From Chromatiales bacterium (GTDB taxonomy: Bacteria; Pseudomonadota; Gammaproteobacteria; SZUA-152): a stretch of DNA of 43,340 nucleotides. The position numbers and the translations under genes were made by a program. The DNA is taken from assembly GCA_026982475.1 (NCBI GenBank), contig JALSHB010000201.1, forward strand, positions 1 through 43,340. Direction: 5' to 3'. The notes under the pieces are model-generated. The model was not told where the DNA came from. It did no database searches and worked only from the letters and a program-made list of their open reading frames with translations. The stretch's first letter is position 1, and every line of letters starts with the position of its first letter. Shown piece by piece: positions 5,715 to 22,546 of this stretch.

Positions 5715-7181
5715 ATGTTTTTCACTGACAACCGCAGCCATTTCTTCCGCCCCTTCGCCGGCAAATACCGCGAACAGGTGGTGGAATGCCTGCGCAGCCT
5801 GCACGCCCATCTCTACGGCTCATTGGCCGACTACAGGCGCGCCTTCACCCGTGAGCAGGTGCTGGAGGCCTTTACCGAGGCCATCACCCGCACCCCCGTG
5901 CTGGACGAGGAAGAAGAGGATTTTTCCGCCCCCGCGCGTGGCGAGCGCGAGCAGGCCAACTGGATTCTCAACCTGCTGCTGGAGCATGGCTGGGTGGAGC
6001 GCCACGCCGACGAGGCCACCCTGCAAAGCAGCTACGCCTTCAGCCGCGTCGGCCGCCTGTTCACCCAGCCCATGGTGGAGACCGCCGGCGGCGGCTTCCG
6101 CACCCGCCATCGCAATACCCGCAACACCCGCAACGCCCTGCAATCCTTCCTCGAACGCGGCGAGGCCTATGACCTGCTCGATGCCTATGAATACTCCGAA
6201 CGCATCATCAGTGACTTCAGCGACGTGATCGCCGAGCTGGACGAACGCAAGCGCCTGCTGGTGCGCGAGGTGGAGGCGCAGCAGGTCATTCAACAGGCCA
6301 GCGACGAATTCTTCGATTTCATGGAAAAGCGCTTCATGCCGGACCTTTCCGTGCGTCTGTCGGCAGACAGCGTGGAAAAATACCGCGATGAAATCCAGTC
6401 GCTGCTGCGCAAGGCCAAGCGCAAACAGAAGGCATTCAAGGCCGGCGCCGAGCGGGAGCTGCGCAAGCTGGCGCCGGAACTGCTGCACGACCGCCAGGCC
6501 TCGCTCTACTACCACATCCTCGACAGCATCGAGTCCCGCATCCACAGCGCCAGCGACATCATGCTGCCGGCGCTGCGCAACGCCCTGCACAGCTTCACCC
6601 GCCGCGCCGACATCATCATCCGCCAGCTCAGCTACACCCTCGGCGGCGAACAGGGCGACCTGCTCAATCTCTGTCAGCAGCTGGGCGCGCAGCCGAAGGA
6701 CAAACAGCCGGCGGCGCTGGACGCCGTCGCCGACGCCATGGCCAGCCTCGACCTGGGCGTGACCGACCCCGCCGCCCTGCGCCTGCACGCCGGGCGGCAA
6801 CGGCGGGTGGTGAACAGCAGCGTCGAGGCGCACGCGCCCATGGACAAGGCCGCGCGCCGCGAGCTGTTCATCCAGCAATCGCTGCAAAAGGCCTTCGTGG
6901 TCAACAACCAACAAATGGGGCAATTCATCATCGACGCCCTCAGAAACGGCCACCGCATCCACAGCAATCAGCTGCCGGTGCACAGCGCCCGCGATCTGCT
7001 GATGGCCGCCCACGCCATCGAGGCCGGCGCCGCCGGGCGCGACTCCAGCGAATTCCGCTTCCGCGTGCAGCCCACCGGCCAGCGGGTACAGACCGATTAT
7101 TATCAAATGACCGACGACTTCATCATCGAACTGGTGGAGCATGGCCAGCAAACCCCTGTGGAAAACCACCATGCTGACTGA
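5715..7181 (+). CDS. jetA: Wadjet defence protein JetA / condensin kleisin MksF-like
   Basis: A 488-residue protein matching the JetA/MksF family as I remember it: opening MFFTDNRSHFFRPFAGKYREQVVECLR, then EYSERIISDFSDVI and MEKRFMPDLSVRLS. JetA is the kleisin that closes the SMC ring of the Wadjet complex by joining the heads and necks of JetC dimers and holding JetB. The opening and body resemble the MksF-like branch rather than the DUF3375 JetA branch, but I cannot verify this without a profile search. The ATG at 5715 matches where homologues start; upstream in-frame codons look like extension, and no strong ribosome site is visible. It overlaps jetB by 11 bp. Cytoplasmic; first gene of the operon. 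Confidence 0.9.
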   Translation: MFFTDNRSHFFRPFAGKYREQVVECLRSLHAHLYGSLADYRRAFTREQVLEAFTEAITRTPVLDEEEEDFSAPARGEREQANWILNLLLEHGWVERHADEATLQSSYAFSRVGRLFTQPMVETAGGGFRTRHRNTRNTRNALQSFLERGEAYDLLDAYEYSERIISDFSDVIAELDERKRLLVREVEAQQVIQQASDEFFDFMEKRFMPDLSVRLSADSVEKYRDEIQSLLRKAKRKQKAFKAGAERELRKLAPELLHDRQASLYYHILDSIESRIHSASDIMLPALRNALHSFTRRADIIIRQLSYTLGGEQGDLLNLCQQLGAQPKDKQPAALDAVADAMASLDLGVTDPAALRLHAGRQRRVVNSSVEAHAPMDKAARRELFIQQSLQKAFVVNNQQMGQFIIDALRNGHRIHSNQLPVHSARDLLMAAHAIEAGAAGRDSSEFRFRVQPTGQRVQTDYYQMTDDFIIELVEHGQQTPVENHHAD

Positions 7182-7851
7182 TGCCCTGAGCCAACGGCTC
7201 GAGCGGGAAAACCTGAGCCTCGACGAGTTCCGCGAACTCATCATCCGCCTGCTCAATTATGGCGTGCTGTGCCGCGACGAAAGCCAGACCGAGCAACAGC
7301 TCTACGACCGCTACCTGCGCATCGCCGACCTGGTGCAGGATTACCTGCAGGTCATGGACATCAGCGTCTTTCACGAGCGGCGCTTCGAATACCTGCGCCT
7401 CTACCCGCCGGGCAGTCAGACGCCGGGCAGGGACGAGGCCGACGCCTCGGCCTTCGCCGGCAGCCTGCGCAAACGCCTGTCACAATCGGAAGTGGCCATG
7501 GTGCTGGTGCTGCGCCTGCAATACGACAAGGCCCTGCGCGAAGGCCAGGTGGACGACAAGGGCTACGTCACCGAATCCATCGAGGCCCTCGGCATCGCCA
7601 TGAAAAACATCCTCGCGCGCAACCTGCCGGAAAAACTCACCGAGCGGAAACAGCTGTTCACCCACCTGCGCCGCCTGCGCCTGATCGCGTTTCGCAGCGA
7701 AGACGACCTGCTCAGCGGCGAGGCCTGGCTGAAGATCCATCCCATGATCGTCAGCTTCGTCAACGACGCGGCGGTACAGGCGCTGTCCTCGGCGACGGCC
7801 GCGGAAAGCCGGGACACGGCCGAATCCACCACCGAAACACACGCGGATTGA
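7171..7851 (+). CDS. jetB: Wadjet defence protein JetB / MksE-like (DUF4194)
   Basis: A 226-residue JetB family protein (KITE-type winged-helix dimer partner of the kleisin). Recognisable segments are RLLNYGVLCRDESQ, YLRLYPPGSQTPG, VLRLQYDKALREGQVD and LTERKQLFTHLRRLRLI. It bridges kleisin and SMC in the complex and probably helps hold DNA. I prefer the ATG at 7171 (MLTDALS) because family members begin this way; an in-frame ATG at 7141 has GGTGGAG one base away and would add ten residues. It overlaps the jetA end by 11 bp and is followed after 6 bp by jetC, so co-translation is likely. The C-terminal 20 residues are low-complexity and acidic. Confidence 0.9.
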   Translation: MLTDALSQRLERENLSLDEFRELIIRLLNYGVLCRDESQTEQQLYDRYLRIADLVQDYLQVMDISVFHERRFEYLRLYPPGSQTPGRDEADASAFAGSLRKRLSQSEVAMVLVLRLQYDKALREGQVDDKGYVTESIEALGIAMKNILARNLPEKLTERKQLFTHLRRLRLIAFRSEDDLLSGEAWLKIHPMIVSFVNDAAVQALSSATAAESRDTAESTTETHAD

Positions 7852-7857
7852 CCCTTC

Positions 7858-10800
7858 ATGTTTCTGAAAAAATTCATCTTCGTGAACTGGGGCAACATCC
7901 CGCAGCTGGAATTCGAACTGGGCCCCATCAACCTGTTGTCGGGCGGCAACGGCTCGGGCAAGACCACGGCGGCGGACGCCATCCAGACCATCATGACCGC
8001 CGCCCACGAAAACCTGTTCCAGTACAACCCGGGACAGGACGAAACCACCCAGCGCGGCCGCGGCGGCAAGCGCGTGCGCACCCTGGCCTCCTATGTGCTC
8101 GGCTGCGACGACGGCAGCTATGCACGCCTCGACCCCACCGACGGCTACCTCGCCGCCGTGTTCCACCCCACCCGGGGCGAGACGGCGGAACCCTTCACCG
8201 CCGTCATCGGCGTGCGCGCCTGGCTGGACACCACCGGCGGGCAACAGGTGGCGCGGCAGGACGACCTGCTGTTCCTGATCCTCCCCGGCGAGGAGCTGAC
8301 GCTGGCCCATTTCGTCCGCGAGGATAAAGTGGCTGGCAAAAAACTCGGCCAATACATCACCCCCCTGGACAAGCTGCAGAACCTGCTGATCCGCGAATTC
8401 GGCCAGCGCCATGTGCAGAAATACGACACCAAGAAGACCTACCTGCGCCGCCTCTACGCCGCCCTGCGCGGCCAGCACGACAGCGTCTCCGAGGCCGAGG
8501 CCACCGCCGCCGCACGCGCCTTTTCCCGCTTCATGGCCTACAAGCCGGTGCGCAGCATCAACGACTTCGTCGCCCGCGAGATCCTCGAAAGGAAAGATCT
8601 CGGCGAGGCCATCCGCGCCATTTCCGGCCAGCTCAAGACCATCCACGGCATGGAACGCGACGCCGCCCAGTTGGTGGAATCCATCGGCATCCTGGAACAC
8701 GCCGAGCAACAGGCCAGCCACTACATCCAGCAATGGATCGAACTCAACAGCCTCGACTTCACCCTCGCCCAGTACGACTACCTGCAACGCCAGCGCGACT
8801 ACCTCAAGGCCAAGCAACAGCAGAGCGATTACCAGCGCCGGCTGCAGGAAAACGAAGCCGAAACGACGCTGACCGAACAACGCCTGCAACAAGTCATTGA
8901 TCAGCGCGTGCAGCTGGAGGCCCAGCGCCTGGGCATCGACGCCCTGCAACAGAAAGACGAACTGGAACAGCAACGCGAACAACAACAGACCCGGCTCACG
9001 GACATCGCCCGCCAGCTGCTGGAACAGGACAACTCGCTGCACAACAACCTGCAAGCCACCCAAGCCATCGAAAGGGATCTGCAAGACGCCGAACTGATGG
9101 ACGCCCTGCCCCAGCTGGCCGATCTGCAAATCCGCCAACTGGCGCGCCGCGTGCTGCAGGAAGGCGCGCGCGGTGAACTGGACATCCCCGCCCTGCTGCA
9201 AAAGGATCTGACCAACGACCTGTCGCCACTGGAGCTACACCTGGATCAGGCGCGCGCCGCCCAGCGCCTGCACAATCAGTGGCAACAGCAATGGCATGTG
9301 CACGACGAGGCCACGGACACCCCCTCCCTGCACGATCAGCTGGCGAAACTGGCGCATAAACGCGAGGCCCGCTATGAACAGCTGAAAGGCCAGCGCCGGC
9401 AAAAACAGCAGGACATCGAACGCCTGCAGGCACAGCAGGTCACCTACCCACTTCATGTTACGCGGGCGCTGCAGGCCATCCGCCGCGACTGCCCGCAGGC
9501 CGATCCGCGCGTGCTGTGCGATCACGTCGAGGTCAGCGACCCGCGCTGGCAGATGGCCATCGAGGGCTACCTGGGCATGGCGCGCTTTTCCATCATCGTC
9601 GCCGCCGACTTCGAGGCCGAGGCGATCCGCATCGTGCGCCAGCTGCCGGGGCGCGACAACCGCGCGCGCATCATCCAGGGCGGCAAGGCGCAGCGCGACG
9701 CCGAACGCAGCACGCTGCCGGCCGATTCCATCATCCACCTGCTGTCCTTCAGCCACGCCACGGCGAAACACTACCTGACCGCCAGTTACGGCACCGTGGT
9801 GCAGGTGGCCTCGGCCGAGGCGCTGCGCCAGACCCGCCGCGGCCTGACCGCCGACGGCATGGGCGCCGGCGGCTACAGCATGTTCCGCTGCGACCTGCCC
9901 GACAGCGAGCTGGTGTTCGGCGTCGCCGCCCGCGAGCGGGCCCTGAAGGCCACCCAACAGGAACTGGCGCGCCTCGACGAGGAATGGCAACAGGCCAACG
10001 ACCGCATGCAACAGGTCGGCCGCCTGCTCGACAACGTCCGCAAACTGCGGCCGCTGGACTACGCCGACGCCATCACCCGCATGCTGGAAATCCACCGTGA
10101 ACTGCAAAGGCTGGAAAACCTGCTGGCGCAGCTGGACCTGTCGGAACACCGCGACCTGGAAGACAAACTGGCCAGCCTGCGCGAACAGGAACAACAGCTG
10201 CGCCAGCAACAGGGCAGTCTCAAGGAAGGCAAGGGCGAGCTGCAGGAAAAGATGCGCAAGACCGCCAAGCGCTGCGAGGCGCTGGCCGACGAACAGGAGG
10301 CCACCCAGCAGGTGGTCGAAGACTGCGAACGGAACCTGCTGGCCATCGCCACCGTGTGGCCCGGGTTCGACGCCGACGCCCGCCTGGCCACGGCGGAAAA
10401 GGAGGCCGCGGCCATGGGCGCCGAGGCGGCCGCCAGCGCCGCCAATTACCGTCAGGAAATCGAGCGCAACCTGCACAGCCTGGAGCGCAAGATGGACGAG
10501 GCGATCCAGCAACACAATCAGCATTGTCTGCCCGGCGACGCCATCGTCCATCACAGCTTCAACGGCGACTACGATGACGCCCTGTTCCGCGCCATCTGCG
10601 GCCTGCAGCGCGAGCTGGACCGGGTCTTCAATCGCCTGAAAAACAACATCCTGGTGGAAAGACACGACGAGCTGCGGCAGCTCAAGGACAGCTTCAACAA
10701 CGCCTTCGTCACCCACTTCTGCCACACCATTCATCAGGCCATCAACGACGGCAAGCGCCAGATCGCGCAGCTCAACAAGGAATTGCAGCATCACCGCTTT

Positions 10801-11529
10801 GGCGACGACCGCGAGGGCTTCCGCTTCGACAGCGACTGGATCCCCGAATTTCGTGACTACGCCCGCTTCTTCGAGGAGGTCATCCGTCAGCCCGGTGTCG
10901 GTGACGAGGTCGACCTGTTCAGGATGGAACTGTCGCCAAGGTCACAAAAGGTCCGCGAGGAACTGATGCAGATGCTGCTCGACGAAGACGAGCACAAGGC
11001 GCTGCGGGAACTGGATCGCATCGGCGATTACCGCAATTACCGCAAATACGAAATCTACAAGGAAGTGGCCGGCAAGGAGCCCATCGCCCTGAGCGAATAC
11101 GGCACCGGCAGCGGCGGCCAGCTGGAGACCCCCGCCTACATCATCCGTTCCGCGGCCATCACCTCCGCGTTTCGCTTCGCCGAGGGTAACAGCCACCTGC
11201 GCATGGTGCTGGTGGACGAGGCCTTTTCAAAGATGGACGAAACCCGCTCGCGGGAAGTCATCGACTACCTGACCCGCGCCCTCGGCCTGCAACTGATCTT
11301 CATCATGCCCACCAGCAAGTGCGGGCCGTTCATGGATTTGATCAGCAATGAATTCGTGTTCGCCAAATGCCCCAGCGAACAGCCCCGCGGCCAGCTCCAC
11401 ACCCGGGTGCTGGTGGACCGCAAGCAATGCAACACGGAAAAGATCCAGCAACTGTGGGCCAACCACAAACGCACCGTCTACCAGCAGGCCGAGCTGGACT
11501 TCATGGACGAGGTGCTGGCGGCGGAATGA
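7858..11529 (+). CDS. jetC: Wadjet SMC-like ATPase JetC / MksB
   Basis: A 1,223-residue SMC/MukB-type ATPase, the motor that extrudes DNA loops in Wadjet. Walker A is GGNGSGKTT at residues 29-37 (K35). Two long glutamine- and arginine-rich coiled coils (about 270-500 and 680-860) flank a globular hinge-like region around 510-680 (LCDHVEVSDPRWQMAIEGYL). The ABC signature SGGQ is at about 1085-1088 and Walker B VLVDEAFSKMDE at about 1117-1128 (D1120, E1121). All catalytic motifs look intact, so the gene should be functional. No strong ribosome site is visible before the ATG, 6 bp after jetB. Its stop overlaps the jetD start as ATGA. Confidence 0.95.
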   Translation: MFLKKFIFVNWGNIPQLEFELGPINLLSGGNGSGKTTAADAIQTIMTAAHENLFQYNPGQDETTQRGRGGKRVRTLASYVLGCDDGSYARLDPTDGYLAAVFHPTRGETAEPFTAVIGVRAWLDTTGGQQVARQDDLLFLILPGEELTLAHFVREDKVAGKKLGQYITPLDKLQNLLIREFGQRHVQKYDTKKTYLRRLYAALRGQHDSVSEAEATAAARAFSRFMAYKPVRSINDFVAREILERKDLGEAIRAISGQLKTIHGMERDAAQLVESIGILEHAEQQASHYIQQWIELNSLDFTLAQYDYLQRQRDYLKAKQQQSDYQRRLQENEAETTLTEQRLQQVIDQRVQLEAQRLGIDALQQKDELEQQREQQQTRLTDIARQLLEQDNSLHNNLQATQAIERDLQDAELMDALPQLADLQIRQLARRVLQEGARGELDIPALLQKDLTNDLSPLELHLDQARAAQRLHNQWQQQWHVHDEATDTPSLHDQLAKLAHKREARYEQLKGQRRQKQQDIERLQAQQVTYPLHVTRALQAIRRDCPQADPRVLCDHVEVSDPRWQMAIEGYLGMARFSIIVAADFEAEAIRIVRQLPGRDNRARIIQGGKAQRDAERSTLPADSIIHLLSFSHATAKHYLTASYGTVVQVASAEALRQTRRGLTADGMGAGGYSMFRCDLPDSELVFGVAARERALKATQQELARLDEEWQQANDRMQQVGRLLDNVRKLRPLDYADAITRMLEIHRELQRLENLLAQLDLSEHRDLEDKLASLREQEQQLRQQQGSLKEGKGELQEKMRKTAKRCEALADEQEATQQVVEDCERNLLAIATVWPGFDADARLATAEKEAAAMGAEAAASAANYRQEIERNLHSLERKMDEAIQQHNQHCLPGDAIVHHSFNGDYDDALFRAICGLQRELDRVFNRLKNNILVERHDELRQLKDSFNNAFVTHFCHTIHQAINDGKRQIAQLNKELQHHRFGDDREGFRFDSDWIPEFRDYARFFEEVIRQPGVGDEVDLFRMELSPRSQKVREELMQMLLDEDEHKALRELDRIGDYRNYRKYEIYKEVAGKEPIALSEYGTGSGGQLETPAYIIRSAAITSAFRFAEGNSHLRMVLVDEAFSKMDETRSREVIDYLTRALGLQLIFIMPTSKCGPFMDLISNEFVFAKCPSEQPRGQLHTRVLVDRKQCNTEKIQQLWANHKRTVYQQAELDFMDEVLAAE

Positions 11530-12686
11530 AGGACGCACCCGCCTGGCTGAGCGAAAGCGCCGCTATCGCCGGCCTGCTCACGCAGTTCATCGACCGGCTG
11601 GACAAGCAACCGGCCGCCGATCGCCAGCGGCCGGTGGCCATCACCCTGAATGAAAAGACCCTCCCCGCCCTGTTTCACCAGGGCGCCGAAGCGGATCACC
11701 TGTGGGACCTGATTCAAAGCCTGCAACAGGACCACGCCGTGATTCGCATTAGCCCCAACAAGCGGCGCGATCCCTACGCGCCCGAGTACGCCCAGGCCAG
11801 GCTCACGCTGCAGGCCGACGGCGAGGCAACCCTGCGCCACTGGCTGCAACGGCCGCAAGGACCGCCGGCCCTGCAGTGCTGGCGCAAGGCGGTGGCGGCA
11901 AGGCGCCCGCAGTTTCCAGGCGACACGGAAAAACTGGCCGCCCATCACATCACCGCGCCCGGCCAGGATGACGACGCAGTGATCGACGCCTTCATCCAGC
12001 TCGGCGACTACGCGCAAAAAAACCTGAGCCTGCGCCAACTGAGCAGCCGCTGCTTCTGGGGCGATTCCAAATTTCTCGACAGCCGCGAAGAGCTGATCCG
12101 CGAACTCTATCCCGAATGCGTCATCCGGGCGCGGCCGGTGATGGTCAGCATCTTCATCCCCCGATGTGTCGAAAAGATCGAAGGCATCCTGTTCATCGAA
12201 AACCAGGACAGCTATACCAGCGCCGTCACCGGCAATCCCTCCATCTGCAAAGACCTGATCCTGGTCTACGCGGCCGGATTCAAGGGCAGTGCAAGCAGAA
12301 TCAGACAAGCCGACGGCGTCAGCCTGCACTATCACGGCAAGGCCGACGAACGGGCACAACAGCAACTGGAAGACTGGTGGTTCAAGCGGCGGCCCTGCGG
12401 CTGGCCGGTCTGGTTCTGGGGCGATCTGGACCTGGCCGGCATGGCGATCCTCAAGGCGCTGAAACAACGCTTCAGCGAAATCCGCGCCTGGCCGCCCGGC
12501 TATCGACCCATGCTGGAATCATTGCGACAGCAAAAAGGCCACAGCCCGTCGACGGCCGGCAAGCAGGCACAGCAGGACCCGGGCGTCACCGGCTGTGAAT
12601 TCGCAGACGACGTGTTGCTGCCCGCCCTGCGCCGGCACCAGGCGTACATTGATCAGGAGAGCGTGTTTGAGGTTCCGCGGGGGTAA
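11526..12686 (+). CDS. jetD: Wadjet nuclease subunit JetD / MksG (DUF3322-DUF2220)
   Basis: A 386-residue JetD protein. The N-terminal half (about 1-190) is the arm and helical DUF3322-type region. The C-terminal half is a TOPRIM-type DUF2220 nuclease with E225 (ILFIENQDSYTS) and D300/D302 (WFWGDLDLAGM), the acidic metal-binding set expected for cleavage, and a terminal DQES box near 376-379. In characterised Wadjet systems JetD cuts closed-circular DNA once JetABC has extruded it. The ATG overlaps the jetC stop by 4 bp; a longer upstream frame inside jetC is not needed. Cytoplasmic; last gene of the operon, followed by a palindromic repeat. Confidence 0.93.
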   Translation: MKDAPAWLSESAAIAGLLTQFIDRLDKQPAADRQRPVAITLNEKTLPALFHQGAEADHLWDLIQSLQQDHAVIRISPNKRRDPYAPEYAQARLTLQADGEATLRHWLQRPQGPPALQCWRKAVAARRPQFPGDTEKLAAHHITAPGQDDDAVIDAFIQLGDYAQKNLSLRQLSSRCFWGDSKFLDSREELIRELYPECVIRARPVMVSIFIPRCVEKIEGILFIENQDSYTSAVTGNPSICKDLILVYAAGFKGSASRIRQADGVSLHYHGKADERAQQQLEDWWFKRRPCGWPVWFWGDLDLAGMAILKALKQRFSEIRAWPPGYRPMLESLRQQKGHSPSTAGKQAQQDPGVTGCEFADDVLLPALRRHQAYIDQESVFEVPRG

Positions 12687-22183: not shown

Positions 22184-22546
22184 GGGGGCGACCTGGCTTC
22201 GACGTGGGTCACAAAACCTGAGGTGCATGCCGAGGTGCAGATAACCTCGTAAATCCATCTGCAAAACTTATAGTTGCCAACGACGACAACTACGCACTCG
22301 CCGCCTAAACACCGGTAGGGTGCCCTCTGACCGAAGCCGTGTCTGTGCGTTCGGATTCCAGGGGTCGACTCTCACAGAATCGCGATGAAGCTTGTTCAGG
22401 GCGGATTCGCTAAAACCTCACTGAACTCGCTGTACGTCTTCCCCGTCTGCCGGGTAGCGTGCAGTTAAATCAAAAGGCAGACTAAGCATGTAGATCCGAG
22501 GGCGGAGGATTTACGGACGCGGGTTCGATTCCCGCCGCCTCCACCA
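22184..22546 (+). ncRNA. ssrA: Transfer-messenger RNA (tmRNA)
   Basis: A 363-nt one-piece tmRNA. The acceptor stem pairs GGGGGCG (22184-22190) with CGCCTCC (22536-22542), then ACCA. The tag frame begins at GCC 22276 and ends at TAA 22306-22308, encoding ANDDNYALAA, one residue from E. coli ANDENYALAA. Conserved blocks are AGGTGCATGCCGAGG near the 5' end, GACTAAGCATGTAG and the T-arm GGGTTCGATTCCC. It rescues stalled ribosomes with SmpB. Its last 16 bases are part of a 21-bp direct repeat found again at 27174-27194, so the gene has served as an integration site. Confidence 0.98.

What the first reader, a model, noticed from the sequence alone, without database searches (positions are those of the whole stretch)
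5715..12686. Complete Wadjet (JetABCD) plasmid-defence operon
All four subunits are intact: Walker A, SGGQ and Walker B in JetC, and E225/D300/D302 in JetD, with overlapping or near-touching genes. Composition looks like the neighbours, so it has been resident for long. The kleisin looks like the MksF-type branch. It is a known system but a functional copy matters for plasmid uptake in this host.
Basis: partly seen in the sequence, partly recalled or inferred. Interest (0 to 1): 0.6.

Follow-up and report, generated by a model that had tools for sequence, protein, structure and literature searches.

The report
Type I Wadjet anti-plasmid operon
This is an ordinary, complete four-gene bacterial defence operon of a known kind (type I Wadjet, JetABCD), which most likely finds small circular DNA with a condensin-like motor and cuts it with a dedicated nuclease.

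Summary
Four co-directional, translationally coupled genes, jetA 5715-7181, jetB 7171-7851, jetC 7858-11529 and jetD 11526-12686 (+), are intact. In PADLOC every subunit's best match is the type I model (JetA1, JetB1, JetC1, JetD1), most of them over nearly full length. The JetD model aligns over 249-263 residues with two solved Wadjet nucleases, P. aeruginosa JetD and C. glutamicum MksG. The genome also has a canonical SMC and ScpA, so this is not the housekeeping condensin.

Composition matches the neighbours. In congeneric genomes, intact genes or a decayed jetA lie at the same RND-efflux/chemoreceptor site, which supports long residence. Relatives occur patchily across Gammaproteobacteria.

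It is a new member of a known kind. Plasmid restriction is inferred, not shown. Two side observations: this branch of type I has no recognisable sequence match in the PDB; and JetD evolves faster than JetABC and is physically detached from jetABC in several relatives (for example 308 kb away on one contig), although not here.

The parts
5715..7181 (+). jetA, kleisin subunit, 488 aa (type I)
   Evidence: PADLOC JetA1 PDLC00445 E=2.5e-216 over residues 1-478; Pfam PF18982 JetA 109.7 bits, cut-off 26.2
7171..7851 (+). jetB, KITE (MukE-like) subunit, 226 aa; start ATG at 7171, overlapping jetA by 11 nt
   Evidence: PADLOC JetB1 PDLC00482 E=2.4e-99; Pfam DUF4194 PF13835; start supported by alignment of 10 relatives
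7858..11529 (+). jetC, SMC-like ATPase, 1223 aa, with Walker A, SGGQ signature and Walker B
   Evidence: PADLOC JetC1 PDLC00515 E=0, 1858.5 bits, residues 1-1219; Pfam SbcC_Walker_B and AAA_29; motifs invariant in 11 relatives
11526..12686 (+). jetD, Toprim nuclease subunit, 386 aa; ATGA overlap with jetC; E225, D300, D302 and the conserved DQE motif (376-378)
   Evidence: PADLOC JetD1 PDLC00527 E=2e-114, residues 2-380; Pfam JetD_C over cut-off; residues invariant; model aligns with 7til (263 residues) and 8b7f (249 residues)

Best explanation
A complete type I Wadjet (JetABCD, also called MksBEFG or EptABCD) operon. JetC dimers with the JetA kleisin and JetB KITE dimers form an SMC motor that extrudes DNA loops using ATP. 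On a small circular DNA the motor runs out of DNA to extrude. That state is thought to release the autoinhibited JetD dimer, whose Toprim site (E225, D300, D302 with a divalent metal) makes a double-strand cut in the plasmid. Shown here: gene content, type, intact catalytic motifs, coupled gene order, and a JetD model consistent with the Wadjet nuclease fold. Inferred from studied type I systems (PMC10586767, PMC10123090): loop extrusion, sensing of circular DNA, plasmid cleavage, and any effect in this host.
For: All four subunits match type I PADLOC models best, with E from 2.4e-99 to 0. Pfam assigns JetA, DUF4194, SbcC_Walker_B/AAA_29 and JetD_C, all over cut-off. Catalytic residues are invariant in relatives. 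The JetD model aligns across its length only with Wadjet nucleases among the rows shown, 8b7f and 7til; the other rows cover only the N-terminal winged-helix part. A canonical SMC and ScpA are encoded elsewhere in the genome. The PF09983 search rings in C. glutamicum, which has a studied MksBEFG system, and in none of the other 13 control genomes.
Against: No activity data exist. JetA, JetB, JetC and JetD profiles of this branch find no significant sequence match to any Wadjet chain in the PDB, so transfer of mechanism rests on profile families and on the JetD fold. Structural support for JetD is modest: mean pLDDT 73.4, pTM 0.43, Z 6.2-6.7 with rmsd about 14 A over two flexibly linked domains. 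The literal IFDR motif reported at the JetB N-terminus in a studied system (PMC10586767) is absent here.
Confidence: 0.93

Rival explanations
1. A housekeeping or auxiliary condensin (MukBEF or MksBEF-like) that organises the chromosome, with JetD an accessory protein.
For: JetABC is homologous to MukFEB (PMC10123090). JetA and JetC are strongly conserved (83-91% identity across two genera), and jetD is physically detached in some relatives.
Against: No MukB, MukF or MukE family match. Canonical SMC and ScpA are present. Presence is patchy: 12 of 24 family genomes have JetD and 19 of 369 class genomes have a JetC match. An intact Toprim nuclease is coupled to jetC.
Confidence: 0.04
2. An intact-looking but inactive or repurposed Wadjet, for example acting on other circular DNA such as phage replication intermediates rather than plasmids.
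For: No functional data; the branch is distant in sequence from the solved systems; there is a decayed jetA remnant at the same site in congener G001.
Against: All motifs and reading frames are intact, and the JetD catalytic residues are invariant from congeners down to a relative with 39% JetD identity.
Confidence: 0.08

Closest known systems
Type I Wadjet JetABCD (E. coli GF4-3, P. aeruginosa PA14)
   Same: Same four subunits in the same order, type I models for all, Toprim nuclease with conserved acidic residues; the JetD model aligns with PA14 JetD 7til over 263 residues.
   Different: A distant branch: no significant sequence match to a Wadjet PDB chain even with profiles; no literal IFDR motif at the JetB N-terminus.
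MksBEFG of Corynebacterium glutamicum (Wadjet type I)
   Same: Subunit composition; the JetD model aligns with MksG 8b7f over 249 residues; PF09983 rings in this control genome.
   Different: 14% identity in the JetD structural alignment; the active-site tyrosine proposed for MksG (PMC10123090) was not tested here.
MukBEF / Smc-ScpAB condensins
   Same: SMC ATPase, kleisin and KITE architecture.
   Different: No nuclease subunit in those; this genome has Smc and ScpA separately.

Membership tests
Wadjet type I (JetABCD) | Four adjacent genes encoding kleisin, KITE, SMC ATPase and Toprim nuclease | tested here: met
   jetA-B-C-D in order, overlapping or 6 nt apart
Wadjet type I (JetABCD) | Subunits score best with type I rather than type II or III profiles | tested here: met
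   best models JetA1, JetB1, JetC1, JetD1; the best type II or III hit is far weaker (JetC2 57.4 against 1858.5 bits; JetD3 29.9 against 380.7 bits)
Wadjet type I (JetABCD) | Functional ABC ATPase motifs in JetC | tested here: met
   GSGKTT 32-37, SGGQ 1085-1088 and D1120/E1121 invariant
Wadjet type I (JetABCD) | JetD Toprim metal-binding acids and JetD fold | tested here: met
   E225, D300, D302 invariant; 7til and 8b7f among matches spanning residues 11-343
Wadjet type I (JetABCD) | JetB N-terminal IFDR motif contacting JetD | tested here: inconclusive
   Literal IFDR absent; an invariant LYDR stretch (44-47) lies further in; no reference JetB sequence could be aligned
Wadjet type I (JetABCD) | Restriction and cleavage of small circular plasmids, ATP-dependent | not testable with these tools
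   Needs an experiment
MukBEF / housekeeping condensin | MukB/MukF family match and sole chromosomal condensin | tested here: not met
   No MukB or MukF match; canonical SMC and ScpA elsewhere in the genome

The most novel reading that the evidence does not exclude
This branch of type I Wadjet may recruit JetD differently from the studied systems: JetD is the fast-evolving subunit, is encoded in trans in several relatives, and the published JetB docking motif is not recognisable. JetABC might then carry out loop extrusion independently of JetD, with the nuclease as an exchangeable module.
Probability: 0.12. Interest if true: 0.45.

Novelty: new member of a known kind. Interest (0 to 1): 0.15.

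Why it matters
It marks an intact plasmid-restriction system in an uncultured gammaproteobacterial lineage. That would limit small-plasmid uptake there and would matter for anyone trying to make relatives genetically tractable. Detached jetD genes in relatives also mean that operon-based searches would call such genomes 'incomplete Wadjet' although both parts are present.

Tried and rejected
Sequence searches of the PDB with single proteins and with profiles found no Wadjet chain; a different JetC from family member G007 found none either. The JetA structure model was too poor to use (mean pLDDT 54.7). I considered that JetABC in the sister genus had been recently transferred because it is more alike (83-86%) than LigA (72-73%). 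Fourfold-degenerate sites were only moderately more alike (JetC 0.50-0.65 against LigA 0.44-0.51), with differing GC3, so I do not claim a transfer. The G008 JetC row (61 aligned residues) is an artefact of how I took that locus and is ignored; tblastn on L091 gives 63% over the whole length. I looked for an alternative effector replacing JetD after jetC in L083, L090 and L023 and saw only ordinary unrelated genes. A literature search for Wadjet without JetD found nothing on point.

Full report
Observation. The only correction is the jetB start, best set at ATG 7171 rather than the longest-ORF start 7141. The profile match begins two residues after that ATG, and ten relatives align from there. 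The genes overlap by 11 nt (A/B), are separated by 6 nt (B/C) and overlap by 4 nt (C/D), which fits one coupled operon. The nearest genes, an RND efflux adaptor on the upstream side and a chemoreceptor on the downstream side, are on the opposite strand.

Identity. PADLOC places every subunit with the type I models: JetA1 717 bits, JetB1 330 bits, JetC1 1858 bits, JetD1 381 bits. Type II and III models score far lower. Pfam gives Wadjet JetA (PF18982), DUF4194, SbcC_Walker_B with AAA_29, and JetD_C, all over cut-off. JetC carries Walker A, the SGGQ signature and Walker B, invariant in 11 relatives.

JetD structure. An AlphaFold2 model of moderate quality (mean pLDDT 73.4) was compared with solved structures. 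Among the rows shown, the two alignments that run through most of the model are the C. glutamicum MksG nuclease (8b7f, 249 residues, model 13-342) and P. aeruginosa JetD (7til, 263 residues, model 11-343). The other rows cover the N-terminal winged-helix region only. Z is 6.2-6.7 and rmsd about 14 A, perhaps because the two domains sit differently, so this supports the assignment but does not prove it. Foldseek's best hits are topoisomerase VI A subunits, the known structural relatives of JetD (PMC10586767), but with no E-value below 0.001.

Not the housekeeping condensin. The genome encodes a full-length canonical SMC (1171 bits, over cut-off) and a ScpA.

Residence and relatives. GC, GC3 and codon usage lie within the range of neighbouring genes. 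Within the genus, G004 has the same RND-jetA junction, G003 has jetD followed by the orthologous chemoreceptor, and G001 has a decayed jetA fragment at the RND junction besides genes elsewhere. G006 (98% complete) has no jet genes detected, and no jet sequence lies in the 2.6 kb before its RND adaptor. G002 carries the operon on another contig, and its RND site shows no jet genes. This pattern fits an old resident at this site that has decayed or been lost in some species and sits elsewhere in others. JetC relatives at 61-66% identity are scattered over other gammaproteobacterial families, and 19 of 369 class genomes match at all. Record titles of the closest relatives are gammaproteobacterial MAGs, several labelled Chromatiales or Ectothiorhodospiraceae. 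On plasmids only distant relatives (34% or less over most of the protein) were found, and in phages a single weak match.

Mechanism. From studied type I systems (PMC10586767, PMC10123090), JetABC is an ATP-driven SMC complex that distinguishes small circular DNA, and JetD is an autoinhibited Toprim nuclease that then cuts it. Nothing in the sequence argues against this here, but loop extrusion, circular-DNA sensing, cutting and any effect on plasmid uptake in this host are inferred.

Side observations. (a) JetD is always the least conserved subunit, about 13-25 points below JetA and JetC in the relatives compared. (b) In several relatives jetD has left the operon. In G298 jetABC lies at 403 kb and the only jetD at 95 kb of one contig. 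In G018 jetC is followed by other genes, including a hemL-like gene identified by eye from its translation, and jetD is on another contig. In G012 a match to the last residues of JetC lies at the very start of contig C9 and jetD about 3.5 kb further on. No jetABC lies near the detached copies. (c) Profiles of this branch do not reach any Wadjet chain in the PDB by sequence, so it is distant from the solved systems. These points make the branch mildly interesting, but they do not change the verdict for the window: a complete, ordinary type I Wadjet operon.

Noticed in passing
L083/L096 (G298:C7), L067/L098 (G018:C27), L097 (G012:C9): In relatives jetD is detached from jetABC: 308 kb apart on one contig in G298, on a different contig in G018, about 3.5 kb downstream in G012. 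No jetABC lies near the detached copies, and the G018 copy keeps its catalytic acids.
   Followed up: partly
L024 9443-10000, L030 5899-6231, L031 13658-13835, L022 4217-4344: Short intergenic repeats, several with inverted copies, sit in the jetB-jetC and jetC-jetD gaps of sister genomes; L030 also has a partial duplicate of the jetB 3' end. The window's operon is free of them.
   Followed up: partly
L099 (G001:C484): A decayed jetA fragment at the RND junction in a congener that also has jetA, jetB, jetC and jetD sequence elsewhere, suggesting decay of an old copy and a second acquisition or move.
   Followed up: partly
window 11526-12686 compared with relatives: JetD is consistently less conserved than JetA, JetB and JetC (for example 62% against 86-89% in the sister genus), also at fourfold-degenerate sites (0.33-0.41 against 0.57-0.67).
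   Followed up: partly
window 22184-22546: tmRNA gene with tag ANDDNYALAA, and a tRNA-Leu(cag) at 320-406; the Wadjet operon is not next to either.
   Followed up: no
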